Positions 3 to 12,064 of a DNA stretch of 12,274 nucleotides are shown here, in pieces. The DNA is from Oscillospiraceae bacterium (GTDB lineage Bacteria; Bacillota; Clostridia; Oscillospirales; Oscillospiraceae). The stretch lies in NCBI GenBank assembly GCA_017936205.1, contig JAGBGB010000262.1:1-12274 (forward strand), read 5' to 3'. Both the position numbers and the translations under genes were made by a program. Position 1 is the stretch's first letter, and every line of letters starts with the position of its first letter. The notes under the pieces were generated by a model that saw only the letters and a list, made by a program, of their open reading frames with translations, ran no database searches and was not told the DNA's origin.

Positions 3-1454
3 ATCGATGTGATCGAGGATGAGGACAGCTTCCTGATCGTGATGGATTACATAGAGGGTATTTCCCTAAAGAAACAGTTAGAGGAATACGGTGCCCAGCC
101 TCAGCAGGATGTGATCAAGTGGGCGAAGCAGCTCTGTGAGGTCTTTGCCTACCTCCACAGCCGTACGCCACCGATCATCTATCGGGATATGAAGCCCGGT
201 AATATTATGCTCAAGCCAAATGGGGATGTAGTTCTCATTGACTTCGGCACAGCCAGAGAATTTAAGGAAAGCAGTGTAGATGATACCAAGTGCTTGGGCA
301 CCATCGGCTACGCCGCCCCCGAGCAGTTCGGGGGAATGGGGCAGACGGACGGCAGGACGGATATTTACTGTTTGGGTACTACCATGTACCATTTGGTTAC
401 GGGGCACAATCCCAGCGCACCGCCCTATGAGATCCTTCCCATTCGTCAGATCAACGAAGCACTTTCCGGAGGCTTGGAGCAGATCATCCTGAAGTGTACC
501 CAGCAGAACCCGGATAACCGTTACCAATCTGCTGCTGAACTGATGTATGCATTAGAGAATTTCCAAACCTTCGATGGTGCGGAGAAGCGGAAGCAGAAAC
601 GGAGATTAGGTACCTTCCTTGCCTGTGCAGGTATGTCCCTTGTATGTCTGGGGGCAGCTATAGGCTTTGGCACACAGGCTACCAGTAAGGCAACAGACAG
701 CTACGAGAATGTGCTTTTCGAGGCTGAGTCTGCCATTGAGGACAGCCAGCGGATCGAGAAGTATCTGGAATGCATCGATATCCCGCAGATGGCAGGGAGA
801 AAAGAAGCCTATATGGGGCTCTTCGAAACCTACAAGAGAGATATGGTCTTTACCAGAGAAGAGCTTGAAACGGCAGTCAATGTGGTCAGCGATCCTGAGC
901 ATTCTCAGGCACTTCTTGCAAATCCGGAAACTTACGGAGAGATCTGCTTTGAGTTGGGAAAGCTGTACTGGTACTACTATGACGATGCAGACCAAACCAA
1001 TCGGGCAAAAAGTGCTATGCCTTGGTTTGAAAAAGCCATTAAGAACAGTTCGGAGCAGGCATCCTTTATAGGAACCGCGAGGGCTTATGCCTCTATCGGA
1101 CATTTCTACACCTCCATTGCCAGCAGCATCAATGAGGCTTCGGATCAGGGGATGTACAAGGAGCTCTTCCACAGCATTTCTCAGATCGTGGATAGCATCG
1201 CAAACGATGCTGCAGAGCCGGACATTGTACGTCTGGAAATTTTTGAGATGTCTCGGAATATGCTGGAGCAGTATGCCACTCGTTTGAAGCGAGATGGCAT
1301 CAGCAGTGCTGAGGCTATGGGACTCTTTGAAAAGATTCGGGATCGCTTGCCTTCTGTTCCGGCAGAAACAGATAAGTGCAGAGTCCTGAAGGATGCGACC
1401 CTTTCCCGTCTGGAGAAGACGAAGGAAACCGTATCCCTTGCATACGGAACATAA
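3..1454 (+). CDS. Membrane-anchored eukaryote-like Ser/Thr protein kinase, 5' end missing
   Basis: The reading frame is open to the window's left edge (I-D-V-I-E-D...), so the glycine-rich loop and most of the kinase N-lobe lie upstream. What is visible starts near the hinge (LIVMDYIEG). The catalytic loop YRDMKPGN (about nt 180-203) has Tyr where most kinases have His, and keeps the catalytic Asp, the Lys and the Asn. DFG is at about nt 240-248, and GTIGYAAPEQF, the activation segment end with APE, at about nt 300-330. DIYCLG of helix F and the closing RYQSAAEL region follow, so the C-lobe looks catalytically intact. A basic stretch (KRKQKRR) precedes one membrane helix at about nt 606-674. 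The remaining 255 or so residues should be extracytoplasmic. They look helical, with a TPR-like piece (ELGKLYWYYY... AMPWFEKAIK), not PASTA repeats. The stop overlaps the ribosome binding site of the next gene. Its target is inferred to be the ETT-repeat protein next door. Confidence 0.93.
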   Translation: MDVIEDEDSFLIVMDYIEGISLKKQLEEYGAQPQQDVIKWAKQLCEVFAYLHSRTPPIIYRDMKPGNIMLKPNGDVVLIDFGTAREFKESSVDDTKCLGTIGYAAPEQFGGMGQTDGRTDIYCLGTTMYHLVTGHNPSAPPYEILPIRQINEALSGGLEQIILKCTQQNPDNRYQSAAELMYALENFQTFDGAEKRKQKRRLGTFLACAGMSLVCLGAAIGFGTQATSKATDSYENVLFEAESAIEDSQRIEKYLECIDIPQMAGRKEAYMGLFETYKRDMVFTREELETAVNVVSDPEHSQALLANPETYGEICFELGKLYWYYYDDADQTNRAKSAMPWFEKAIKNSSEQASFIGTARAYASIGHFYTSIASSINEASDQGMYKELFHSISQIVDSIANDAAEPDIVRLEIFEMSRNMLEQYATRLKRDGISSAEAMGLFEKIRDRLPSVPAETDKCRVLKDATLSRLEKTKETVSLAYGT

Positions 1455-1468: not shown

Positions 1469-2203
1469 ATGACAGTTGAAACATTGGAAATACTGAGTAT
1501 TGTTGGCTACATATTGGCAGGTCTGTTCTTCATCCTGTCTGTGGTATTGTTTTTTACCATGAAGGTTCCCAAGTTGATCTCAGACCTGACAGGTCGTACG
1601 GAGAAGAAAGCCATTGCTGCCATCCGTCAGCAGAGTGAGCAGCGGGAGGATAATGTTCTTACCGGCAATACAGACAGGATCGGCAAACCCGATAACACAG
1701 GCAGGATCGGCAGATCCGGTCTGCTGAGTCGTCAGGATAAGCAGAAGGGGAAGGCTACGGCGAAGAAGGGGATCCGTTATGGCAATGTGGTTACAAAGCC
1801 CGGCAGTGCCAAGGATTCTGAGGTTCCTACAGCCCCTCTGCCTGTTATGCAGGAGATTGTAGAGGAAAACTTGACTACCACACTACGGCAGGATGAGCCT
1901 TCTGACGAGACCTCTGTCCTTTCGGCAGCTGCAGAAGATGATGAGACTACCTTGCTTTCAGCTCCGGCAGATAGTGACGAGACTACCATCCTTTCTCAGC
2001 CTGCCCCAAGCGATGAAACTACCATTCTCTCCCAACCTGCAGTGGGAGAAACCACTGTGCTTTCTCAGGGAATGACCGGAGATTTGACACAGATCACACA
2101 GCAGAACCGTAACAAGCAGTCTGCCAAACAGACAGCAGCTCCGGCTGTGCTTGTAGTCGAGGTCGACCGATTCTTCATGGAGAGTAAGGAGTTGATCGAA
2201 TGA
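1469..2203 (+). CDS. Single-pass membrane protein with cytoplasmic ETT phospho-acceptor-like repeat array
   Basis: This 244-residue protein has one membrane helix at about residues 8-31, preceded by an acidic N-terminus and followed by K/R-rich sequence. By the positive-inside rule the long tail is cytoplasmic, on the same face as the kinase domain. Residues 32-110 are basic and look disordered. Residues 135-199 hold six in-phase copies of an E-T-T/S-x-L-S-like motif, with motif starts at 135, 147, 159, 171, 183 and 194. The C-terminus is a short hydrophobic/acidic stretch (VLVVEVDRFF...). No FHA, kinase or enzymatic domain is visible. The ETT sites resemble those phosphorylated by PknB/PknG-type kinases in GarA and OdhI, which FHA domains then bind. 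With a kinase gene 14 bases upstream, a substrate or phospho-docking scaffold role is the best guess. It could instead be a structural or regulatory membrane protein whose repeats have another use. Confidence 0.88.
   Translation: MTVETLEILSIVGYILAGLFFILSVVLFFTMKVPKLISDLTGRTEKKAIAAIRQQSEQREDNVLTGNTDRIGKPDNTGRIGRSGLLSRQDKQKGKATAKKGIRYGNVVTKPGSAKDSEVPTAPLPVMQEIVEENLTTTLRQDEPSDETSVLSAAAEDDETTLLSAPADSDETTILSQPAPSDETTILSQPAVGETTVLSQGMTGDLTQITQQNRNKQSAKQTAAPAVLVVEVDRFFMESKELIE
1871..2065 (+). repeat. Six in-phase 12-codon repeats encoding ETT(I/L/V)LS motifs
   Basis: The copies, by residue, are LTTTL (135), ETSVLS (147), ETTLLS (159), ETTILS (171), ETTILS (183) and ETTVLS (194). The spacing is 12, 12, 12, 12 and 11 residues. 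The first copy lacks Glu but keeps Thr-Thr-x-Leu in exact phase. The linkers are rich in Asp, Ser, Pro and Ala. The third-base choices differ strongly between copies, so this is not a recent DNA slippage product. Confidence 0.9.
2183..2191 (+). promoter_or_regulatory. Ribosome binding site of the four-helix membrane protein
   Basis: AGTAAGGAG lies inside the end of the preceding gene, 8 bases before the ATG at 2200. Together with the ATGA overlap it implies translational coupling. Confidence 0.75.
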
Positions 2204-2724
2204 GAAGAAATCGAGAACAATGGGCAGCAGTCCGCAAAATGAGGACCCAATTCCACGGAGCACTGGCAGGTGTGGGGCTGTCCGCCTGTGCGCTGCTTTG
2301 TATTCCCTTCCTGGGAAACTACGGCTCCGGCAGTCTCCCAACCTCTTTTTTGATCGTAGGGATCACGTTTTGGCTTGGTATTCTTCTGGAAGCCTTGTGC
2401 TACATTCTTGCTGCAATGACCAAGGCTCGCTATAAACGAGCAGCGGAGGATCCGGAACAATTCACCGAGGGACCTGTAGGAATGATTGGATTTCTACGGA
2501 ACAGAGAGGCGAGGATCGCAGATATCGCCTTGCTCCTATCCCTTGTCTGGTTGATCCTGACCATCGCCCTGTCGTGGAGTGGGGCATGGCAAATCATTCT
2601 ATCTGTTACTGCGTTTTTTATCAGCCTCCAGCTTCATGGAGCGCTGAACGGTAGGATCTATGAGATCCTGAGATCGGAAAATCATCACAGAAAAGGAGAG
2701 CGTAACAATGATGAGAAACCTTAA
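2200..2724 (+). CDS. Four-helix integral membrane protein of unknown function
   Basis: The 174-residue product has four hydrophobic segments, at about residues 20-39, 48-73, 106-127 and 129-149. The N-terminus (MRRNREQW...), the central loop (about residues 74-105, with KARYKR and FLRNREAR) and the C-terminal tail (about residues 150-174) are charged and basic, so all three should face the cytoplasm and the outer loops are very short. No catalytic motif, transporter signature or known domain was recognised. The gene overlaps its upstream neighbour by ATGA and its downstream neighbour by 17 bases, so it is very probably made together with both. Its place between a signalling pair and a giant exported protein suggests a membrane partner of either one, such as an assembly, anchoring or relay factor, but nothing in the sequence fixes this. 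Confidence 0.85.
   Translation: MRRNREQWAAVRKMRTQFHGALAGVGLSACALLCIPFLGNYGSGSLPTSFLIVGITFWLGILLEALCYILAAMTKARYKRAAEDPEQFTEGPVGMIGFLRNREARIADIALLLSLVWLILTIALSWSGAWQIILSVTAFFISLQLHGALNGRIYEILRSENHHRKGERNNDEKP
2692..2698 (+). promoter_or_regulatory. Ribosome binding site of the giant surface protein
   Basis: AAAGGAG lies 9 bases before the ATG at 2708, within the 3' end of the preceding gene. A second in-frame ATG at 2711 is possible, but its spacing of 12 bases is less usual. Confidence 0.8.
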
Positions 2725-2794
2725 ACACAGAATTCTCGCCATGCTCTTGGTACTTGTCCTTCTTCTTGGTATGCTTCCTACTCCGATTTTTGCG
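2708..2794 (+). other. Sec signal peptide coding segment
   Basis: Residues 1-29 have a basic n-region (R3, K6, R8), a hydrophobic core of about 14 residues rich in Leu and Val, and a P-T-P-I-F-A cut region. The mature protein would begin EEGEG. There is no lipobox Cys at the cut, so it should be cut by signal peptidase I. Confidence 0.88.
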
Positions 2795-5700
2795 GAGGAG
2801 GGGGAAGGCTGTACCATTGTCCATGTAAACGAGGAGATCCCTGTAGGCACACGGATCGTCGCAACGAGCTTGAGCTCCGACGATCAGTCCGTTATACAGG
2901 AGGATTGGCTGGATGTGATCGAGCCCGGAGTTGCAAAAACTCTGGACGAGGCAGGTCTTGCAGTCAATGACGATGGCATTTCCTATAAGTTCACCCTGCT
3001 GTATCCTGTGGTTAAGGTAGAGAACCGCTTGATCGGCATCTACGGAGAGTCTGAGAGCTATACTCTGACAAGTGAGCATATCTTGGCACCCGTTAAGGTG
3101 AAGATCAATGAGGCTGCTTCCGTGAAGCATACCTTGGATTTCGGCGCTCCTGTAGGAGTGGCTACCATTACCTCCTATATTGATTTGGACAAAAGCAGTA
3201 CCGGAGAGAATTGGGTCGCACATCGGACCATTACCATTGACAAGAATGCGACCACCGCAATTCTGAGCTGCTATTCTAACTACGACTATTACTTCACTGT
3301 TACAGGCAATGACCTTCAGCCTCTGCAGACCCGACCCATTTCGATCTCTTCCGAAGAGACCACCACGCAGCTTGCTGACATTGAGAGGATCTACAGAGCC
3401 ACTGTGAAGTATGATGCTCAGCTCGGCACAGTAAGCCTTGACGGGAAGACCGTTCAAAGTGGTGAGACCCTGGTTCTGTCTGAGGATCTGCGTTTGACTG
3501 CCACTGCCACTGCAAACTATCACGGCATTACCAAGGTTCTCCTTGGAGATACGGAAGTTACGCCTCCTGCTACAGCACAGAATCTGCCTCCCAAGACCTA
3601 TATCATCGATCTTTCTGCATATGATATTGCAAGCATTGATCAGATCAGCATTACCTTCTCCCGATATGCAAATGAGCAGGAACTGCTGATCGATGGTATG
3701 GGAACGGTCAAGAATCAGAATCAAGACGAGCTGAATTCCGGCATATTCCCTGTAACTGCAGATAAGGATCATACCCTGTATTTTGAAGCAGCAACAGAGT
3801 GGGTGATCCAATCCCTGACGGTCAATGATCAGGCCTTGGCGGATGCTGTAGGCCAGACGACCTATACCCTGCGTTATTCCGGTAGAAGACAGAACACCAT
3901 CCATGTGGTGTTTGTAGAGAAAACCTATCCCGTAACCTACTCCATTGGTGCCAACGGTACCGTGGATGTGGAAAATGAGGGAACCGACCTTAGCGGACAG
4001 GGCTCTTTGACTCTGGGCTACAAGCTTAATGATCAAATTCCTTTTATCATCCGTGCCAAGGAAAACTACCACATTGCTTCTCTTCTGATCAACGGCGCAC
4101 CTGTTATGATCGAAGTGGATGGCAAAATGGTAGAAAAGGTGTGGACCAGAGATGATGCCTCCTATGAGGGCATCCTGACAGTAGGAAGAGAAAAGAATAC
4201 CATTGAGGTCACCTTTGCAGAGAATATTTACTCCTATTCTATTCATGTGAAGGACGAGAACTACGGTTCTGCTTACCTGACCGAAAAAAGCGGCAATTTG
4301 ATCCTTTCTCTGGTTCCCGGCGACAGATGCCATCTGGTATCCATCCAGTGTCGGAACGGTATTACCGGAGAGGTTACTTCTTTGGACCTGAGTCAGGTCG
4401 TACAGGATCCGGAGCATGAGGATCAGTTCATTCTGACCATTGAGAAGCCTAAGTATGATGCATTTTACACCGTGACCTTCGAAGCCAATACCATTTCCAC
4501 CCCTGACCCCAAGGAGGTCAATGCAACCCAAGGCGTTGACGGCTCCTATACGGTCAGCTATGATAAAGAGCTTCCTGTGAGAGTTCATATCGTAGAGGAC
4601 GGTGCTGTGGTCAACGGCAAGAAGTATGACCGCTACTATGTCCTTGTAAAGGATGGAACCAAGGTCACCTTCGCACCCCAGTCTCCTTATCGGAAGATCG
4701 AGCTGAAGACTATGGGACAGGGCGGCTTCGGTGGAGACTACAGGAGCTCCGTATCCTTCACTGTCAAGAAGAATCAGGGCTATAGCTTCGATGAGATCAA
4801 CCTGATTGAGCGTGACCGCTGGTCCATTATTGCAAAGACCAAAACCGAGCGCACCCCCATGATCTTCCTTACGGATGATCTTGCACCCACATTAGAGATC
4901 CTCAATGATCCCGGCGCTCCTGTATATACAAATGAGGATTACATTGTGAACTTTAAGGCTGCTGAAGAGGCTGACGATCTTAGTAAGCAGATCCTTTCCT
5001 CCGGTTTGGATTATCTGAAGTACAGTATTCAGAATGTTACCACCGGAGAGTATGTCAAGCAGGATGCAACTGTGAAGTTTGACGAGCAGGGCAATACCGT
5101 TCCCGCAGGCATTTCTATCAATGCACCGGAAAGCGGCCACGGAACCTTCGAGATCACCGCTATCGCATATGACAAGGCAGGCAATGCCTCCGAGACACGG
5201 AAACTGACGGTTACCATCAGCACCCTGATCCCTGAGATCAGCATTGATTTCAAGAATGCCGCTGAGAGTGCTCCTGTTGAGTATGAGAACGATCTGGACT
5301 GGTATCAGGCTGTTGAGGCTGTGATTACCGTGAAGGATCCCTGCTTTGATGCAGCCCATCAGCAATATGCTCGCAAGGTGCTGGTAGATATCGAGCTGAT
5401 CCCGCAGGAGCATGAAGCTCTCGTCTGGAAACAGACAGAGGATAAGACCGGCTATTACACCACTGTAGCTCTGGCTGACGGAGAGTATATCGCCCTTGCG
5501 ACTGCTCCGTTCCGGTATACCAACATTGCGGGCAACTCTGCGGAGCTTATCCAATTCTCCCGAGACGGAGATCCTGTTCCTTGCTCCTTCGGTGTAGATA
5601 GCGATGCACCGGATGCAAAGGTTCGAGTGGGAGAAGCAAATACCTGGGATACCCTTGCAACTGCTCTGACTTTTGGTCTGTTCTACAGACAGGACAATCA

Positions 5701-8700
5701 GCAGATGGTTCAGGTCTGTGTGGAAGAAGAGAATCTTGCAGCACTGAACTATGTGAAGCTCCCCGGTGCCTATGTTCGTGAGAATGGTCTTGACCAGCTT
5801 GACGGTCTTCAGGCATGGCTGCAGCTGAATGTAGATCAGATCCAATGGACAGATGCTACGGCAGACTGGAATCACTTTGCAGTCGGAACTCCCGAGGGAA
5901 CAGAGCTCTGGATGGATCTGACCGGCTTCACAGAAGAAAATGAAGAAATGGTGGTTCTTGTCGCTGTAATCGATAAGGCAAACAACACCACCTACTGCTC
6001 CACAGACGGCTTGATGCTGGACTCCGAAGCACCTACTATGGAGATGCCTATTATTTCCGAGACGGAGGAGGGCGTATATGTCGTTACCTTCAAGTGTGCG
6101 GATAAGGCAGTAGCTCCCTCTCTGACAGCGGGCTCCCATCCTTTGGGTGGCGAGTTCAATACAGAGAAGGAATATCCCATTCTGTCCGGCGTGACCCATT
6201 TGGAGATCACTCGAGAGTATATGGGACAGACCGAATCCATCAAGATGGATTACTCAGAGCTGATGCAGATGACCATTGACTCTGCTGTTTATGATGCAGG
6301 AGATGTTCGCATCACTGTAGCTGCAGTAGATGCTGCAGGTAATCGCTCTGCTACAAGATCTATCACGCTGGATACCCACCCTGCTGCATTGGAGCTGACA
6401 TCTGATCGTGGAGACCGGTTTGAGGGTGGCTACTATCAGAGTCTGACCGCCAAGGTTATCATTACAGAAGAAAGAGCCATCTTCGATGCACAGAAGGTTC
6501 ATATTTCCCTGATCCGTCATGGAGAGCTTGGGGATGAACCCATTCTTGGAGAGCATAGCTGGTCCGCCAGCGAGGTCGAGAACACCATCGACAACAAGAA
6601 TGTCTGCCTGATTCCCGTTCTTGAAGAAGGCTACTACACCCTGACTGTTAAATATAATGGTATGGAGGAGATTCGTTCCTTCTACATCGACACGACTGCG
6701 CCTCAGGCTGCTGTAGAGTTTGAAGAACAGCTTGCTGATCGGCTCCTGAGAGCAGTTACCTTCGATGCCATTACCAATCAGAACCTGCTGACCTCCGCCC
6801 TTGTCAGTGATAACTATGGCATTGCATCCCTGCAGTATTACAAGGCACCCTTCGATCCCAAGAATGATAGCTTCGCTATTCTGTCCGAGGAGGAGCTGGA
6901 GATGCTCTCCAACGAGGCTTGGCAGGAGGTCGCCCTTTCGAATGGCCAGTCTGCCTACGAGCTGTTCGAGGTGTCTGAGGATGAGGCATTCGTAGTATAC
7001 CTGAAGGTCGTTGACCTCGCAGGTAATGTTACCTACTGCAATACCAAGAGCGTGGCTGTGGTGGATAAGGAGAAGCCTAAGGCAGAGCTCCATGTAGGTG
7101 AGAATACTTGGAACAGCTTGGTGTCTGCTGTGACCTTCGGACTGTTCTCCAGAGAGACCCTTGAGGTTTCCGCTACCATTGAAGACAGTCTCTCCGGTGT
7201 AGAGACTGTAGAATACTTGATCCAGACCAAGGATGAGGAATTCACAAATACAGAGGAAATCTTGGGGCAGTGGATCCCTGTTACCGAGTATGCTCTTGGG
7301 GAGAGCTTTGCTGTTTGTACACTGGACCAGAGCGGTCCCTATGTTGTATACCTTCGTGTAATCGACCGTGCGAAGAATGTTCAGATCGTCAATTCCGAGG
7401 GTATGGTTTATGACAATTCCATTCTGAGTGTAGACTTTACTGCTGAGGATGCAGATCCCGAGAACGCAAGCCAGCCTCCTGTTGAGGGTGAAAAGATCTT
7501 CAATGGAGATGTAAAGCTGTCTATCGCTACCTCCGAGACCGTATTGGGTATTCAGAGCGTGATCCTCCATCTTCCTGTAGAGGGTGCTGTGGAGGATGTG
7601 ATCCTCTTCCAATACGAGATCGTGGAAGAGAACGGTCAGCGTTATGCTCGTGTTCTTGACCGTTCCAAGCCTGAGGGCGAGCAGGAGTACACCATTGCAG
7701 ATCCTGCACCTCAGTATTCTCAGCTGCAATTCTCTTGGACAGGAAGCTTCGTGGTTCCTTCCGGTGAATTTAACCTGAACGATATGCCCATCGGGGTCAC
7801 GGTGACCGATAACTCCGGTGCACAAGCGACTACCACCAAGCATATCTCCATTGACACAGATGCACCTGTAGTCAAGCTGAGCTACTCCGATTCCTTCGTG
7901 GATGAAGAGCAGAATGCGCCTAAGAATGGCTTCTATTACAGAGGCGACAGAACCCTCCGTGTGGAGGTTGCAGAGAGAGCAAGCAACTTCGATCCCACCA
8001 CCATTGAGCTGAACCTTTCTGTCAAGAATAAGAAGGGCGAGGAGCTGAAAAATGCAGAGGGTGAGTTGTTGGGCGAGCTTCTGCTCAAGGATATCCGGGA
8101 TCCCGCAAACTGGAAGTCTCAGGGAGATATCCACAGCTACGAATATGCCTTCTCTGTAGACGGCATCTATACCTTCAGCGAGCTGGAGGAGGGAGCTGCC
8201 CTGTATATCCGCATGAAGGATAAGGCAAATAACAGCAATCAGTCTAATTCCATTGAGGAAGGCTGCATCAATGTGGCACACTATGTTCTGGACAAGGAGC
8301 CTATGACTGCAAGCCTGTTCAGTATGGATCGTACATGGGACACCCTGCTCAGCATCTTCACCTTCGGTCTGTTCTCTCAGAACGAAGAGGAGGTAACCGG
8401 CTTGGTATCCGACACCATCTCTCCCTTGGATAAGGCATACTACTATGTATCCGATGGGGCTGATGCCGTTCCTGAGAAGGTAGAAAGCTGGACTCCTGTG
8501 GCTGACATGGAGCGTATTACAGACGACGAAAGCTTCCCTGTGACCACTCTGGAGAAGAATAGCAAGAATGTTGTCTATCTGGCAGTTATGGACAGAGCCG
8601 GCAATCTGACCAAGATCACCTCTGACGGCATGATCATTGACGATCAGAAGCCTGTTCTTCAGGGGAATGCCATTGCTGTTTCCGGCGGTGCAAAGGATTA

Positions 8701-11700
8701 CTACAACCATGCTGTAAAGCTGGATCTCCATGCTGCAGACGCAGTTGCGGAGGATGGCAGCTATTCCGGTATCGCCAAGGTTGAGATCAAGATCCTTGAT
8801 ACTGTCACTAAGTACGAGGAGACCCATGAGCTGTACAGCTATGAGATCCTCCGTAATGAGGACGATACTGTAAAGTCCATTGTGATCAAGGACAGCACCA
8901 ATGGGGACTCCACCATTGAAGGGGAGAACCTTCCTTCCTTCGAGCAGTTGAAGGCAACTTGGGCAGGGCAGTATACTGTTACTCCCGGCTTCGATACCTT
9001 CAACCATATTACTGAGGTCACACTTCTTGTTACGGATATGGCAGGCAATATTCAGGTCAGCGCTCCCTTCCGTATGGAATTCGACCTGACTGCTCCTGAG
9101 ATCCATGTGACCTACAACGAGACAGAGCCTGTCCGTTATGAGGACGGTGTTGCCTACTTTGCTCATTCCAGAAGTGCTGTGATCACGATCTTCGAGCGTG
9201 AGGGCAGACTGGATCTGGATAGAATGGAAGAGCTGTTGAAGCTGAGCTATACGGCTAAGGATCGCAGAGGAAATGCCGTTGCGGATGCAAAGGTAGAGAT
9301 CGACCATAGCCAGTGGCGCTTCGTTGAGAATGTAGAGGATCCGGATCAGTCCTACTACAGCAATCAGATCCACTTCCTGTCTGATGCCAACTATCAGATC
9401 ACAGAGGTAGAGGGCTATGAGAATGCTCTTGGCTTCGCTGTTAGTGACGCTGCAGGGAACCCCAGCGCAGAGGTGGTGTACGACAACAGCACCGAGCCTG
9501 CTGTGAAGTACAACTACAGCTTCACTGTGGATACTACAGCTCCTACAGGCAGCCTGACCATGAACGACAGCATTACATGGAGCACCTTCCTGAATGTGAT
9601 TACTTTTGGTCTGTATGAGAAGGTAAGCCCCTCTGTGACTGCCAAGGTCGATGACCTGACCTCTCCCATTGATCCTGAGTCTGTGTACTATCTGATCACA
9701 GACGGCAAGATCAACGAGGGCGGCATAGCTCCCACATTAGATGAGCTGCTGAAGCAGTCCTGGACAAAGGCAGAGGGTCTTGATCTGAGCAGCATCCATG
9801 ATAACAAGCTCAGCATTTGTAAGATCCCTGAGTATACCCATGTTGTGTACCTGCAGTTCAAGGACTATGCAGGCAACCGCACAGTCATCAGCACAGATGG
9901 TGTGGTTGTGGACTTTGTCAAGCCGGAAGTCAAGATCACTGCACCCAATGCGGATGAGAGCTTCATTTATAATTCCGATGTAACTCTGAAGCTATGGGCA
10001 GGGGAGCCTGAGAATGCCTACGATTCCTATTCCGGTCTGGCATCTGTGGACTACTATGTCATGTTCCCCAACTCTACTCAGTGGGTAGAGCCTGCGGGTG
10101 GTTCTAACCTCTTTACCTTCAGCTATGACAAGGAAGCAGGTCAGCAGAATCCCTATCGTGAGCAGCTGGTTCAGACTGTTGAGAGAACGGTGGTTCTGGA
10201 TACTGCGCGGTATAACTTCAACAACTTGAAGATCAAGCTGGTTGTCAAGGATAATGCCGGTCATACCAACGAGGTGATCCGCAATATCAACATTGATAGC
10301 ACGCTGCCTCAGATTACCGTGTCCTACGACAACAACACTGCTACCAATGATACCTACTTCAAGGATCAGAGAACTGCAACCATTACGGTACGGGAGCGTA
10401 ATTTCGATCCTGCCAAGTTTGTCTACAGCACCAGCTCCTCTTCCACCGGGGCGCCGAGAATCGGTCAGTGGAGAGAGGTAAGAGCCGGCTCCGAGGCAAA
10501 TCTGGATGATCGCACCTATGAGACCAAGATCGTATTCAGTGCAGATAGTGACTATCGCTTCTCTCTCGGAGAATGCACCCTTACAGATAAGGCGGGGAAC
10601 CGCTGTGCCGGAGCTCGCTTTGTCGACGGTACTGTGGCAGGTGAGAGCTTCACCGTGGATAAGACGGTTCCCGTGATCACGGTTACCTATGATAACAATG
10701 AAGTTGAGAATGGCAAGTACTACAAGGCATACAGAACCGCTACCGTTACCATTCAGGAGCGGAACTTCCGTGACAGCTTGGTCAATGTAAGCCTGACCGC
10801 AACTCTCGATGGCAAGGGTGCCGAGGCACCTAAGGTCAGTGCATGGAATCGTAGCGGTGATGCCTTTACAGCCACCATCCACTACAATGCAGATGCAGAG
10901 TACAGCTTCGACATCGCCCTACAGGATCTTGCAGGGAATGCGTCTGCAGATTATGCGAAGGAAAGCTTCGTGATCGACACCACAGCTCCCGTGCTGGAGA
11001 TCAGCGGTGTGGAGCATGAATCTGCAAACAGCGGGGCCGTGGCACCTGTTGTCAGCTATTCTGACCTGAATCTGGATGAGAAGAACACAAAGCTGAGTCT
11101 CAATGCCGCAAATCGTGGTGAGTTCGACCATAGCCATACCACTGAGGAAATCGAGCATGGTCTGAAGATCAGCTATGAGAACTTCCCTGAGGAGAAGGAC
11201 TATGATGATATCTATGTCATGAAGGCTGTGGTAACCGACATGGCAGGCAATGTGACGGAGCAGGCAGTGGAATTCTCCATCAACCGCTTCGGCTCTACCT
11301 ACGAGATCGACGAGGCCACCCAGGCTCTCAACGGCACCTACGCTCAGGAAGCGGGAGATGTGGTCATCAGCGAGGTCAATGCCAACGAGCTCAGTGAGAT
11401 CGAGGTCACTCTCTACCGCAACAACGAGACCTACACCCTTGTAGAAGGGAAGGATTATGAGATCCTTGTAGAAGGCGGAGAAGGCAACTGGTACAAGTAT
11501 ACCTACCGTATTTTCAGCGAGAACTTTGCTGAGGACGGAAACTATCGTGTCGCTGTCCATTCCAAGGATCAGGCAGGAAATGTTGCAGAGAACTCTCTGG
11601 ATACCAAGAATATGGATATCAACTTTGGTATCGATCGCACCAAGCCCAGCATTACCTTGGGCAACCTCCAGAACGGAAAGACCTATCCCGTAGAGCTGTT

Positions 11701-12064
11701 CACAGCCAATATGCTTGTCAATGACAACCTGAAGCTGGATCAGGTTATCGTATATCTGGACGGAACGGAATGGGCAAGCTGGGACGCTGCCAAGATCATG
11801 GAGATCCTGTCCGGTGATGGTGAATTCACCTTCGACATTGACGACTTCAGCAACAATGCACATGAAGCTCGCATCTACGCAAGAGATGCTGCAGGCAATG
11901 AGCAGGAGCTGACTGTTGAGGATTTCTATGTTACCACGAACCCCGTGGTTCGCTACTACAACAACAAGCCTCTGTTCTATGGCAGCATTGGCGGCGGAGT
12001 GGGTCTGATCGGACTTCTCATTATTCTCCTTGCCAAGCGTAAGAAGAAAGACAATAACGCGTAA
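2708..12064 (+). CDS. Giant Ig-like-repeat surface protein with signal peptide and C-terminal membrane anchor
   Basis: This 3118-residue protein (roughly 340 kDa) starts with a Sec signal peptide: basic MMRNLKHR, a hydrophobic core, and a likely cut after IFA at residue 29. About residues 229-594 form four beta repeats, each ending in a strand such as ISITF or IEVTF, somewhat like divergent InlB B-repeats. From about residue 610 onward there are at least 17 Ig-like domains, marked by 12 DxAGN motifs and five variants (such as DKANN, DRAKN, DNAGH), often followed by D(T/K)xAP linkers. Three domain types recur: A (TFGLF), B (mixed) and C (ERNFD). The C-terminus is a membrane helix at about 3092-3109 followed by KRKKK, and I see no LPxTG motif. 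A long surface adhesin or stalk is likely. No lectin, vWA, protease or glycosidase domain was recognised. The Ig-repeat surface architecture is well supported; the ligand and role are unknown. Confidence 0.93.
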   Translation: MMRNLKHRILAMLLVLVLLLGMLPTPIFAEEGEGCTIVHVNEEIPVGTRIVATSLSSDDQSVIQEDWLDVIEPGVAKTLDEAGLAVNDDGISYKFTLLYPVVKVENRLIGIYGESESYTLTSEHILAPVKVKINEAASVKHTLDFGAPVGVATITSYIDLDKSSTGENWVAHRTITIDKNATTAILSCYSNYDYYFTVTGNDLQPLQTRPISISSEETTTQLADIERIYRATVKYDAQLGTVSLDGKTVQSGETLVLSEDLRLTATATANYHGITKVLLGDTEVTPPATAQNLPPKTYIIDLSAYDIASIDQISITFSRYANEQELLIDGMGTVKNQNQDELNSGIFPVTADKDHTLYFEAATEWVIQSLTVNDQALADAVGQTTYTLRYSGRRQNTIHVVFVEKTYPVTYSIGANGTVDVENEGTDLSGQGSLTLGYKLNDQIPFIIRAKENYHIASLLINGAPVMIEVDGKMVEKVWTRDDASYEGILTVGREKNTIEVTFAENIYSYSIHVKDENYGSAYLTEKSGNLILSLVPGDRCHLVSIQCRNGITGEVTSLDLSQVVQDPEHEDQFILTIEKPKYDAFYTVTFEANTISTPDPKEVNATQGVDGSYTVSYDKELPVRVHIVEDGAVVNGKKYDRYYVLVKDGTKVTFAPQSPYRKIELKTMGQGGFGGDYRSSVSFTVKKNQGYSFDEINLIERDRWSIIAKTKTERTPMIFLTDDLAPTLEILNDPGAPVYTNEDYIVNFKAAEEADDLSKQILSSGLDYLKYSIQNVTTGEYVKQDATVKFDEQGNTVPAGISINAPESGHGTFEITAIAYDKAGNASETRKLTVTISTLIPEISIDFKNAAESAPVEYENDLDWYQAVEAVITVKDPCFDAAHQQYARKVLVDIELIPQEHEALVWKQTEDKTGYYTTVALADGEYIALATAPFRYTNIAGNSAELIQFSRDGDPVPCSFGVDSDAPDAKVRVGEANTWDTLATALTFGLFYRQDNQQMVQVCVEEENLAALNYVKLPGAYVRENGLDQLDGLQAWLQLNVDQIQWTDATADWNHFAVGTPEGTELWMDLTGFTEENEEMVVLVAVIDKANNTTYCSTDGLMLDSEAPTMEMPIISETEEGVYVVTFKCADKAVAPSLTAGSHPLGGEFNTEKEYPILSGVTHLEITREYMGQTESIKMDYSELMQMTIDSAVYDAGDVRITVAAVDAAGNRSATRSITLDTHPAALELTSDRGDRFEGGYYQSLTAKVIITEERAIFDAQKVHISLIRHGELGDEPILGEHSWSASEVENTIDNKNVCLIPVLEEGYYTLTVKYNGMEEIRSFYIDTTAPQAAVEFEEQLADRLLRAVTFDAITNQNLLTSALVSDNYGIASLQYYKAPFDPKNDSFAILSEEELEMLSNEAWQEVALSNGQSAYELFEVSEDEAFVVYLKVVDLAGNVTYCNTKSVAVVDKEKPKAELHVGENTWNSLVSAVTFGLFSRETLEVSATIEDSLSGVETVEYLIQTKDEEFTNTEEILGQWIPVTEYALGESFAVCTLDQSGPYVVYLRVIDRAKNVQIVNSEGMVYDNSILSVDFTAEDADPENASQPPVEGEKIFNGDVKLSIATSETVLGIQSVILHLPVEGAVEDVILFQYEIVEENGQRYARVLDRSKPEGEQEYTIADPAPQYSQLQFSWTGSFVVPSGEFNLNDMPIGVTVTDNSGAQATTTKHISIDTDAPVVKLSYSDSFVDEEQNAPKNGFYYRGDRTLRVEVAERASNFDPTTIELNLSVKNKKGEELKNAEGELLGELLLKDIRDPANWKSQGDIHSYEYAFSVDGIYTFSELEEGAALYIRMKDKANNSNQSNSIEEGCINVAHYVLDKEPMTASLFSMDRTWDTLLSIFTFGLFSQNEEEVTGLVSDTISPLDKAYYYVSDGADAVPEKVESWTPVADMERITDDESFPVTTLEKNSKNVVYLAVMDRAGNLTKITSDGMIIDDQKPVLQGNAIAVSGGAKDYYNHAVKLDLHAADAVAEDGSYSGIAKVEIKILDTVTKYEETHELYSYEILRNEDDTVKSIVIKDSTNGDSTIEGENLPSFEQLKATWAGQYTVTPGFDTFNHITEVTLLVTDMAGNIQVSAPFRMEFDLTAPEIHVTYNETEPVRYEDGVAYFAHSRSAVITIFEREGRLDLDRMEELLKLSYTAKDRRGNAVADAKVEIDHSQWRFVENVEDPDQSYYSNQIHFLSDANYQITEVEGYENALGFAVSDAAGNPSAEVVYDNSTEPAVKYNYSFTVDTTAPTGSLTMNDSITWSTFLNVITFGLYEKVSPSVTAKVDDLTSPIDPESVYYLITDGKINEGGIAPTLDELLKQSWTKAEGLDLSSIHDNKLSICKIPEYTHVVYLQFKDYAGNRTVISTDGVVVDFVKPEVKITAPNADESFIYNSDVTLKLWAGEPENAYDSYSGLASVDYYVMFPNSTQWVEPAGGSNLFTFSYDKEAGQQNPYREQLVQTVERTVVLDTARYNFNNLKIKLVVKDNAGHTNEVIRNINIDSTLPQITVSYDNNTATNDTYFKDQRTATITVRERNFDPAKFVYSTSSSSTGAPRIGQWREVRAGSEANLDDRTYETKIVFSADSDYRFSLGECTLTDKAGNRCAGARFVDGTVAGESFTVDKTVPVITVTYDNNEVENGKYYKAYRTATVTIQERNFRDSLVNVSLTATLDGKGAEAPKVSAWNRSGDAFTATIHYNADAEYSFDIALQDLAGNASADYAKESFVIDTTAPVLEISGVEHESANSGAVAPVVSYSDLNLDEKNTKLSLNAANRGEFDHSHTTEEIEHGLKISYENFPEEKDYDDIYVMKAVVTDMAGNVTEQAVEFSINRFGSTYEIDEATQALNGTYAQEAGDVVISEVNANELSEIEVTLYRNNETYTLVEGKDYEILVEGGEGNWYKYTYRIFSENFAEDGNYRVAVHSKDQAGNVAENSLDTKNMDINFGIDRTKPSITLGNLQNGKTYPVELFTANMLVNDNLKLDQVIVYLDGTEWASWDAAKIMEILSGDGEFTFDIDDFSNNAHEARIYARDAAGNEQELTVEDFYVTTNPVVRYYNNKPLFYGSIGGGVGLIGLLIILLAKRKKKDNNA
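3392..4489 (+). repeat. N-terminal beta-repeat block, four divergent copies
   Basis: About residues 229-594 break into four units of roughly 90 residues, ending in QISITFSR, IHVVFVEK, IEVTFAEN and YTVTFEAN. Units 1 and 3 share a core (ANYHGITKVLLGD near residue 269 and ENYHIASLLINGA near 452), and unit 3 opens with YSIGANGTVDV. This resembles the divergent InlB B-repeat / Listeria-Bacteroides repeat style. It is the only part of the ectodomain without DxAGN motifs, so it is the best candidate for the exposed tip. Confidence 0.6.
5219..6034 (+). repeat. Ectodomain unit 1: C-type domain C1 then TFGLF domain A1
   Basis: C1 (about residues 838-963) is the most divergent C copy: it has KDPCFD at residues 876-881 where other copies have ERNFD. 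A1 (964-1109) starts DSDAP, carries W980 and TFGLF (TF at 988-989), passes through VIDKANNTT and ends with STDGLMLD at a SEAP linker. Confidence 0.7.
6035..7417 (+). repeat. Ectodomain unit 2: B, C2, then tandem A2 and A3
   Basis: A B-type stretch (about residues 1110-1221, ending VDAAGNRS) is followed by C2 (1222-1326, with ITEERAIFD at 1252-1260). Two A domains then stand back to back. A2 (1327-1451) has lost the Trp and reads AVTFDAI in place of the TFGLF core. A3 (1452-1570) has W1468 and an intact TFGLF. This is the only A-A tandem in the protein. Confidence 0.7.
7418..8653 (+). repeat. Ectodomain unit 3: B, C3, A4
   Basis: The B domain opens with IFNGDVKLSIA and ends with the unusual TDNSGAQA. 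C3 (about residues 1716-1859) has GFYYRGDRT and AERASNFD, with two residues inserted in the ERNFD motif. A4 (1860-1982) has W1877, TFGLF, VVYLAVMDRAGN and a DDQKP exit linker. Confidence 0.7.
8654..9925 (+). repeat. Ectodomain unit 4: B, C4, A5
   Basis: The B domain has YYNHAVKLDLHA and TDMAGNIQ. C4 (about residues 2126-2273) has IFEREGRLD in place of ERNFD. A5 (2274-2406) has W2291, TFGLY, VVYLQFKDYAGN and STDGVVVD. From W1877 in A4 to W2291 in A5 is 414 residues, almost the same as the 409 from A3 to A4. Confidence 0.7.
9926..10975 (+). repeat. Ectodomain unit 5: B, then tandem C5 and C6
   Basis: After a B domain (FIYNSDVTLKLWA to KDNAGHTN) two C domains stand in tandem, at about residues 2530-2650 and 2651-2756. 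Both have the full pattern: SYDNN or TYDNN, YFK or YYK, RTAT(I/V)T and ERNF (2563 and 2684). This unit has no A domain. The nucleotide sequences of C5 and C6 have diverged while the protein pattern is kept, so the duplication is old. Confidence 0.75.
10976..11980 (+). other. Membrane-proximal domains of the surface protein
   Basis: Three further Ig-like domains end in TDMAGNVT, KDQAGNVA and RDAAGNEQ. They lack the TFGLF and ERNFD motifs. The segment INRFGSTYEID joins the first to the second. A YYNNKPLFYG stretch just before the membrane helix is probably the linker to the anchor. Confidence 0.6.
11981..12061 (+). other. C-terminal membrane anchor with basic stop-transfer tail
   Basis: A Gly-rich then Leu/Ile-rich helix (about residues 3092-3109) is followed by KRKKK and a short tail, DNNA. 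The layout matches a sortase-type sorting signal except that no LPxTG-like pentapeptide is seen upstream. I read it as a plain membrane anchor. Confidence 0.8.

What the first reader, a model, noticed from the sequence alone, without database searches (positions are those of the whole stretch)
1871..2065. Six phased ETT motifs beside a Ser/Thr kinase: candidate multi-site phospho-scaffold
Seen: motif starts at residues 135, 147, 159, 171, 183 and 194 of a membrane protein whose tail should be cytoplasmic, encoded 14 bases after a kinase gene. Known: in GarA and OdhI an ETT motif is phosphorylated by PknB/PknG-type kinases and bound by an FHA domain. Inference: this is an array of phospho-acceptor sites that could recruit several FHA proteins or give a graded response to kinase activity. 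The protein itself has no FHA domain, so the reader would be another protein, perhaps encoded upstream.
Basis: partly seen in the sequence, partly recalled or inferred. Interest (0 to 1): 0.72.

Follow-up and report, generated by a model that had tools for sequence, protein, structure and literature searches.

The report
Phosphothreonine motif array in membrane adaptor
A gut bacterium's small membrane protein carries a row of near-identical threonine tags that its neighbouring kinase probably phosphorylates so that a partner protein can dock; in relatives the threonines are kept, the spacing is not, and the tags resemble those on the partner.

Summary
The 244-aa protein (1469-2203) has five good repeats, [DG]-E-T-[TS]-[VIL]-L-S, at T148, 160, 172, 184 and 195 (four ETT, one ETS); the sixth, at residue 135, is only LTTTL. 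No shuffle of 20,000 gave more than one.

In 25 orthologous tails the kept core is T-x-[VIL]-L: T.[VILM][LIM] 71 matches against 6.1 expected, the Ser version 2 against 5.4. Spacing is not conserved. This fits the FHA ligand rule pTxx[I/L/V], strict for pThr (PMC8786283).

All 23 loci with upstream sequence read FHA, PP2C, kinase, array on one strand. Of 23 FHA proteins examined, 23 carry the motif 28-49 residues before the FHA domain, as in GarA. Motif variants of array and FHA protein match within loci (0 of 20,000 permutations).

The protein resembles TseK/TseH of type VII secretion variant e, published without a role (PMC11217815), but 14 of 25 genomes carry TadZ (Tad pilus) and none of these has WXG100 over cut-off.

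Best reading: a kinase-written, FHA-read membrane docking array. Phosphorylation and binding are inferred, not shown.

The parts
3..1454 (+). 3' part of a membrane Ser/Thr kinase gene (5' end beyond the contig); activation loop D-D-T-K-C-L-G-T; hydrophobic segment at residues 202-220 of the fragment, then about 260 residues presumed extracytoplasmic
   Evidence: Pfam Pkinase E 2e-30; hydropathy; activation loop
1469..2203 (+). array protein, 244 aa: TM helix, disordered-looking tail with the motif array, short conserved C-terminus
   Evidence: orthologues; alignment
1499..1555 (+). hydrophobic segment, residues 11-29
   Evidence: hydropathy
1670..1708 (+). two T-x-R-I sites (T68 TDRI, T77 TGRI), members of a second Thr motif class T-x-[KR]-[LIM]
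   Evidence: 25 matches in 15 of 25 tails against 3.5 in shuffles; but its Ser version is also in excess, 9 against 3.0
1904..1924 (+). unit 1, DETSVLS, T148
1940..1960 (+). unit 2, DETTLLS, T160
1976..1996 (+). unit 3, DETTILS, T172
2012..2032 (+). unit 4, DETTILS, T184
2045..2065 (+). unit 5, GETTVLS, T195
2147..2200 (+). C-terminal 18 residues, a second element recognisable in the orthologues (often ...HT-x-E-x-I); role unknown
2200..2724 (+). small membrane protein, 174 aa, at least three hydrophobic segments; neighbour in many but not all orthologous loci
   Evidence: Pfam and NCBIfam matches only below their cut-offs
2708..12064 (+). 3118-aa surface protein: hydrophobic start, Ig-like domains, C-terminal hydrophobic segment; resembles the description of TsdI/TseI
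   Evidence: Pfam Big_13 E 1.7e-16, Big_3_2 E 4.5e-08; hydropathy; PMC11217815 section 9

Best explanation
The tail is a membrane-anchored array of phosphothreonine docking sites. The kinase encoded just upstream senses something through its extracytoplasmic part and phosphorylates the first Thr of each E-T-x-[VIL]-L unit. An FHA protein, encoded upstream of PP2C and kinase in orthologous loci, binds the pThr with Leu at +3. The same motif stands 28-49 residues before the FHA domain of that protein, so its phosphorylation would close the FHA protein on itself, as in GarA/OdhI, or link FHA proteins to one another. The array would thus gather FHA proteins at the membrane beside the giant Ig-like protein and, by gene neighbourhood, at a Tad pilus or a type VII machine; PP2C reverses it. 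Shown here: the motif, Thr not Ser, +3 Leu, gene order, matched variants. Inferred: phosphorylation, FHA binding, the direction of the effect, and which machine is served in the window's organism (its closest relative locus, G016, has TadZ).
For: 25 tails: T.[VILM][LIM] 71 against 6.1 in shuffles, 0 of 2000 shuffles as high; Ser version 2 against 5.4; without the window and its three genus mates 54 against 4.5. Of 79 X-x-[VILM]-L windows X is T in 66 and S in 2. FHA proteins: 23 of 23 carry the motif in the 120 aa before the FHA domain, 47 against 4.5, Ser version 1 against 4.1. Gene order FHA, PP2C, kinase, array in 23 of 23 loci with upstream sequence. Array and FHA-protein variants match within loci: identity at -1, +1, +2 is 0.50 against 0.32, 0 of 20,000 permutations; +4 shows nothing (9769 of 20,000); holds with one locus per genus. 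Codon drift with constant peptide. FHA domains: strict pT, pTxx[I/L/V] (PMC8786283, passages). GarA: ETTS N-terminal to its FHA domain is phosphorylated (PMC12321487, passages).
Against: No phosphorylation or binding data. 3 of 25 tails have no core motif and 4 have one. The pocket Arg of the classic G-R is Lys in 17 of 23 FHA domains, Arg in 2, Ser in 3, Ala in 1 (read). The window's own FHA and PP2C genes are not seen; its genome, 72.5% complete, shows one FHA match, in another context, and no DUF6382. The orthologue profiles A1 and A2 contain the tail, which favours motif-bearing members. Sequences are related, so shuffles overstate independence. Position -2 also matches within loci (93 of 20,000), so some of the matching may be local sequence bias.
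Confidence: 0.72

Rival explanations
1. The motif is a kinase substrate or docking sequence only, a buffer or decoy that imitates the kinase's own activation loop; no FHA domain reads the array, which titrates kinase activity.
For: Activation loops of these loci read [DEN]-T-x-x-[LIM]-G-T in 25 of 25 loops that the pattern found, similar to the motif (the loops of L078 and L082 were not found by that pattern). Multi-site substrates can buffer a kinase (general knowledge).
Against: Thr rather than Ser and Leu at +3 are what FHA pockets ask for; an FHA gene is in all 23 loci.
Confidence: 0.12
2. The units bind another protein without phosphorylation (a plain short linear motif, for instance for the pilus or secretion ATPase); kinase and phosphatase act elsewhere.
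For: Hydrophobic [VIL]-L pairs after an acidic residue are common in binding motifs; no phosphorylation has been shown.
Against: A phosphorylation-free motif would not be expected to refuse Ser so strictly (66 T, 2 S), nor to sit beside FHA domains in 23 of 23 proteins.
Confidence: 0.1
3. Low-complexity repeat expansion without function.
For: Repeat number (0 to 7) and spacing vary freely.
Against: Codon differences among the window's units are 34 synonymous to 16 non-synonymous; the same core in 15 of 17 genera with other linkers; matching with another gene.
Confidence: 0.03
4. The tail lies outside the cell and the Thr residues are, for example, glycosylated.
For: Thr/Ser-rich repeats occur in cell-wall proteins.
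Against: Charge flanks and the published prediction for TseK and TsdH put such tails inside (PMC11217815); the motif is shared with cytoplasmic FHA linkers and is not in excess in the giant surface protein (6 against 8.8).
Confidence: 0.03

Closest known systems
TseK / TseH (TsjK) of type VII secretion variants T7SSe and T7SSj, PMC11217815 (abstract, section 9 and passages seen; figures and supplements not)
   Same: One TM helix and a short unstructured cytoplasmic stretch; encoded with a membrane kinase (D), PPM phosphatase (F), DUF6382-FHA protein (J) and giant Ig-like protein (I)
   Different: Which of K and H it corresponds to was not settled; no motif array or role is described there; 14 of 25 genomes here carry TadZ, and no WXG100 over cut-off
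GarA / OdhI (PMC12321487, passages)
   Same: Phosphorylated ETTS N-terminal to an FHA domain; the FHA proteins of these loci have the same layout
   Different: The array protein has no FHA domain; tandem units; no link to 2-oxoglutarate dehydrogenase known
T6SS PpkA-Fha pathway (PMC12607579, abstract and section 8; Agrobacterium case as told in PMC11217815)
   Same: Membrane kinase and FHA protein at a secretion machine; in Agrobacterium a phosphorylated membrane protein binds an FHA protein
   Different: Other organisms and machine; PpkA itself and Fha form condensates there; no tandem Thr array known to me
Rv1747 with PknF and PstP (PMC9312465, passages)
   Same: Kinase-promoted, phosphatase-reversed clustering through FHA domains and a disordered linker at the membrane
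   Different: FHA domains and linker are in one ABC transporter

Membership tests
FHA-ligand motif pTxx[I/L/V] | Thr, not Ser, at position 0 | tested here: met
   66 T and 2 S among 79 X-x-[VILM]-L windows; 71 against 2 for the [LIM] form
FHA-ligand motif pTxx[I/L/V] | I, L or V at +3 | tested here: met
   L in 66, M in 4, I in 1 of 71 ([LIM] was required by the pattern; V was not counted)
FHA-ligand motif pTxx[I/L/V] | Phosphorylated and bound by an FHA domain | not testable with these tools
   needs experiment
GarA/OdhI | FHA domain in the same protein | tested here: not met
   array protein has none; the FHA proteins of relative loci do have motif plus FHA
[quoted passage not shown]
   23 of 23 have a unit 28-49 residues before the FHA start
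T7SSe component TseK/TseH | Single TM helix, short unstructured cytoplasmic stretch | tested here: met
   hydropathy only; disorder judged by eye
T7SSe component TseK/TseH | Neighbours D, F, J, I | tested here: inconclusive
   window: kinase and giant Ig-like protein present, upstream genes beyond the contig; relatives: FHA, PP2C, kinase in 23 of 23
T7SSe component TseK/TseH | Genome has the secretion system (WXG100, TseC) | tested here: inconclusive
   no WXG100 in G000, 72.5% complete; over cut-off in 7 of 25 genomes; TadZ in 14 of 25
T7SSe component TseK/TseH | Sequence similarity to named TseK or TseH | not tested
   those sequences were not at hand
T6SS-type Thr-phosphorylation pathway | Membrane kinase, PP2C and FHA protein in one cluster | tested here: met
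   23 of 23 relative loci with upstream sequence; works-like only, no T6SS claimed

The most novel reading that the evidence does not exclude
A transferable phosphothreonine address code: one cassette of FHA protein, phosphatase, kinase and array, with its own co-varying motif variant in each lineage, is plugged alternatively into Tad pili and type VII secretion systems. There the multivalent array, FHA proteins and, in some loci, zinc-ribbon proteins bearing the same motif form a reversible membrane assembly or condensate that switches or places the machine where the giant Ig-like protein has made contact.
Probability: 0.3. Interest if true: 0.85.

Novelty: new variant of a known kind. Interest (0 to 1): 0.66.

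Why it matters
A published component class of new type VII secretion variants had no proposed role; the motif offers one that a single in-vitro experiment can test, and it names the residues. By gene neighbourhood it extends pThr-FHA control, known at the T6SS, to Tad pili of Clostridia. The matched variants of array and FHA protein suggest that each cassette keeps a private code, a handle on how bacterial kinase signalling avoids cross-talk.

Tried and rejected
Rejected: a conserved 12-residue phase; 'ETT' as the core (the residue after the kept Thr is T in 29 of 71); chance or composition (controls); filing as a T7SSe member. An FHA reader in the window's own genome: one FHA match only, in a protein that looks FtsW/RodA-like (by eye); DUF6382 none (no control genome rang there, but the family was found in 11 of 147 genomes of the order).

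Led nowhere: the first genome-contig scan found nothing; the second gave two loci. Folding of the motif-FHA stretch (A3) was asked for seven times and never ran, the queue being full; A4 (kinase ectodomain) was aligned but not folded. No fold search, Rfam search or DNA-similarity search was made.

Rows dropped: 34 genomes gave a match; 25 were kept, the window included. Dropped: G148 (near copy of G215), G266 (array gene cut by the contig end), G724 (array ORF not resolved), G747 (like the others only at its C-terminus), and G504, G541, G562, G544, G577 (unrelated ORFs). Second matches L024 (G014) and L061 (G745) were also dropped. The FHA set was taken by place beside these genes: it holds G266, G724 and two proteins of G215, and leaves out G268, G433 and G593 (FHA by signature only), a second FHA-like ORF of G014 and the EssC-like protein of G012. 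Three counted units lie outside the linker proper (G016 and G687 at -9, G014 in a hydrophobic stretch at -119). The matching test used 20 of 25 loci: the window and G292 have no FHA sequence; G272, G433 and G593 have no array unit; units in runs of five hydrophobic residues were left out, an overlapping unit of G745 and a doubtful one of G729 were kept. PP2C and kinase genes of relatives were recognised by signature, not by Pfam.

Print: no description of the array was found by searches of the open PMC library; subscription papers and supplements were not searched. Most papers were seen as listings only.

Full report
What is there. The window is a whole contig (G000:C14) of a 2.46-Mb assembly in 364 contigs, 72.5% complete. 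On the + strand it holds the 3' part of a membrane Ser/Thr kinase gene (3-1454), the gene of the finding (1469-2203, 244 aa), a small membrane protein with at least three hydrophobic segments (2200-2724) and a 3118-aa protein with a hydrophobic start, Ig-like domains and a C-terminal hydrophobic segment (2708-12064).

The observation, corrected. The tail has five units [DG]-E-T-[TS]-[VIL]-L-S with T at 148, 160, 172, 184 and 195. In 20,000 shuffles of the tail no shuffle had more than one ET[TS][VIL]LS. Among the five units, codon differences are 34 synonymous and 16 non-synonymous, so the peptide was kept while the DNA drifted.

Orthologues. Profile searches found the protein patchily: 11 of 400 genomes of the family, 25 of 394 of the order, several of them spurious, and 4 of 17 of the genus. 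Twenty-five proteins of 17 genera were kept. They share a TM segment near the N-terminus, a juxtamembrane stretch and a recognisable C-terminus; between them the tail varies. In those tails T.[VILM][LIM] occurs 71 times in 22 of 25, against 6.1 in shuffles, and the Ser version 2 times against 5.4. Of 79 X-x-[VILM]-L windows X is T in 66 and S in 2. The residue after that T is T in 29 of 71, S in 11, A in 7, E in 6, then D, G, V, I; spacing varies. So the first Thr and the +3 Leu are what is kept, not the phase and not the second Thr. Fifteen of 17 genera have the motif. Against an indispensable array: three tails (G272, G433, G593) have no unit and four (G012, G215, G466, G755) have one. The profiles include the tail, which favours motif-bearing members.

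The reader protein. Upstream sequence exists for 23 of 25 loci (not the window, not G292). All 23 have FHA, PP2C, kinase and array genes in that order on one strand, with other genes between in some, such as a second kinase and a second FHA-like ORF in G014 and zinc-ribbon genes in G734. FHA is by Pfam in 20 of the 23 and by signature in G268, G433 and G593; PP2C and kinase are by signature. Of 23 FHA proteins taken by place, 16 have a DUF6382 match (13 over its cut-off), 4 (G014, G215, G748, G755) a trypsin-like domain instead, 3 neither. All 23 carry the motif in the 120 aa before the FHA domain: 47 against 4.5 in shuffles, Ser version 1 against 4.1; each has a unit 28-49 residues before the FHA start, 15 have two or more there. 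[quoted passage not shown] FHA domains require pT, and one ligand class is pTxx[I/L/V] (PMC8786283, passages). Of the pocket residues, Ser and His of S-[RQ]-x-H are kept in 23 of 23; the Arg of G-R is Lys in 17, Arg in 2, Ser in 3, Ala in 1 (read). Lys for Arg is a caution.

Matched variants. Array and FHA protein of one locus tend to use the same variant: QTVIL in G466, TTVL after Lys or Met in G704, T-G in G755, TQVL in G610. Over 20 loci, same-locus identity at -1, +1 and +2 is 0.50 against 0.32 for permuted loci, with 0 of 20,000 permutations as high. Taken singly: -1 and +1, 1 of 20,000 each; +2, 102; -2, 93; +4, 9769. With one locus per genus (14 loci, 20 draws) 0 or 1 of 4,000; Tad loci alone (10) 3 of 20,000; the other 10 loci 19; without the four most striking loci 4. 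Independent drift of two genes should not give this. Shared composition bias could in part, but +4 shows nothing. The simplest cause is one kinase and one FHA pocket that read both.

Controls. PP2C: T form 21 against 17.9, Ser form 26 against 17.3. Kinase ectodomains: 13 against 9.8 and 10 against 14.4. Cytosolic kinase parts without the activation loop: 16 against 14.8 and 26 against 15.6. The giant protein of the window: 6 against 8.8 and 7 against 7.0. So the T form is not in clear excess in these. The narrower ET.[VILM][LIM] is in excess in the cytosolic kinase parts, 11 against 1.0; I take this for a conserved helix (AETDIL), so the short pattern alone is no proof in folded domains. Four zinc-ribbon proteins of the G687 and G734 loci carry the motif, 8 against 2.1. 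Activation loops of these loci read [DEN]-T-x-x-[LIM]-G-T in 25 of 25 loops found, similar to the motif.

Context. WXG100 is over its cut-off in 7 of 25 genomes and TadZ in 14 of 25, none with both; G178 has TadZ and a WXG100 match below cut-off elsewhere; G000, G012, G748 and G610 have neither. TadZ lies on the array gene's contig within about 21 kb in 10 of the 14; WXG100 on its contig in 5 of the 7. In print the cassette is part of T7SSe: TseJ (DUF6382-FHA), TseF, TseD, TseI, with K and H each described as one TM helix and a short unstructured cytoplasmic stretch, without a role; the authors raise Thr-phosphorylation control in general (PMC11217815, section 9 and passages). The array protein is probably K or H or their counterpart in Tad loci; I could not tell which, and do not file it as a T7SSe member.

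How it probably works (inference). The membrane kinase phosphorylates the array and the FHA protein's linker; the FHA domain binds pT with Leu at +3; PP2C resets it. The array would concentrate FHA proteins at the membrane, as PpkA and Fha form condensates that recruit T6SS parts (PMC12607579, abstract and section 8) and as PknF promotes condensation of Rv1747 (PMC9312465, passages). Whether this turns the machine on, holds it off or only places it is open. No phosphorylation or binding step has been shown.

Verdict. Kinase, FHA and pThr motif are known kinds; the tandem membrane array, its matched variants and its place in Tad loci were not found described in the open papers searched.

Noticed in passing
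window 2147-2200 and C-termini of orthologues: A C-terminal element of about 18 residues (often HT-x-E-x-I) is recognisable even in tails that have no array; its partner is unknown.
   Followed up: no
window 1670-1708 and 15 of 25 tails: A second Thr motif, T-x-[KR]-[LIM] (often T-[DE]-K-[LI]-S), is in excess, 25 against 3.5; its Ser version is too, 9 against 3.0.
   Followed up: partly
L078 4536-5195; L083 3305-4114, 4131-5300, 5488-7206: Zinc-ribbon proteins of T7SS-type loci carry the same TTVL/TSLL motif after the ribbon.
   Followed up: partly
L011, L029, L081, L088: In four loci a trypsin-like domain, a hydrophobic segment and an FHA domain make up the FHA protein in place of DUF6382-FHA.
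   Followed up: partly
25 genomes: TadZ (14) and WXG100 over cut-off (7) do not occur together in the genomes that carry the array protein: the cassette seems to serve either machine.
   Followed up: partly
kinase activation loops: The loops read [DEN]-T-x-x-[LIM]-G-T, similar to the array motif; substrate mimicry of the loop is possible.
   Followed up: partly
L001 178-1896 (G000:C220): The only FHA match of the window's genome is N-terminal in a multi-spanning protein that looks FtsW/RodA-like by eye.
   Followed up: no
L006 1-1562 (G012): FHA protein running off the stretch, near the array locus, with the look of an EssC/TseC N-terminus and G-R, S-R-x-H, N-G pocket residues; FHA E 1.3e-17.
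   Followed up: no
L084 181-924 (G593): The tail lacks the Thr motif but has its own repeat, GGSLRAGLES.
   Followed up: no
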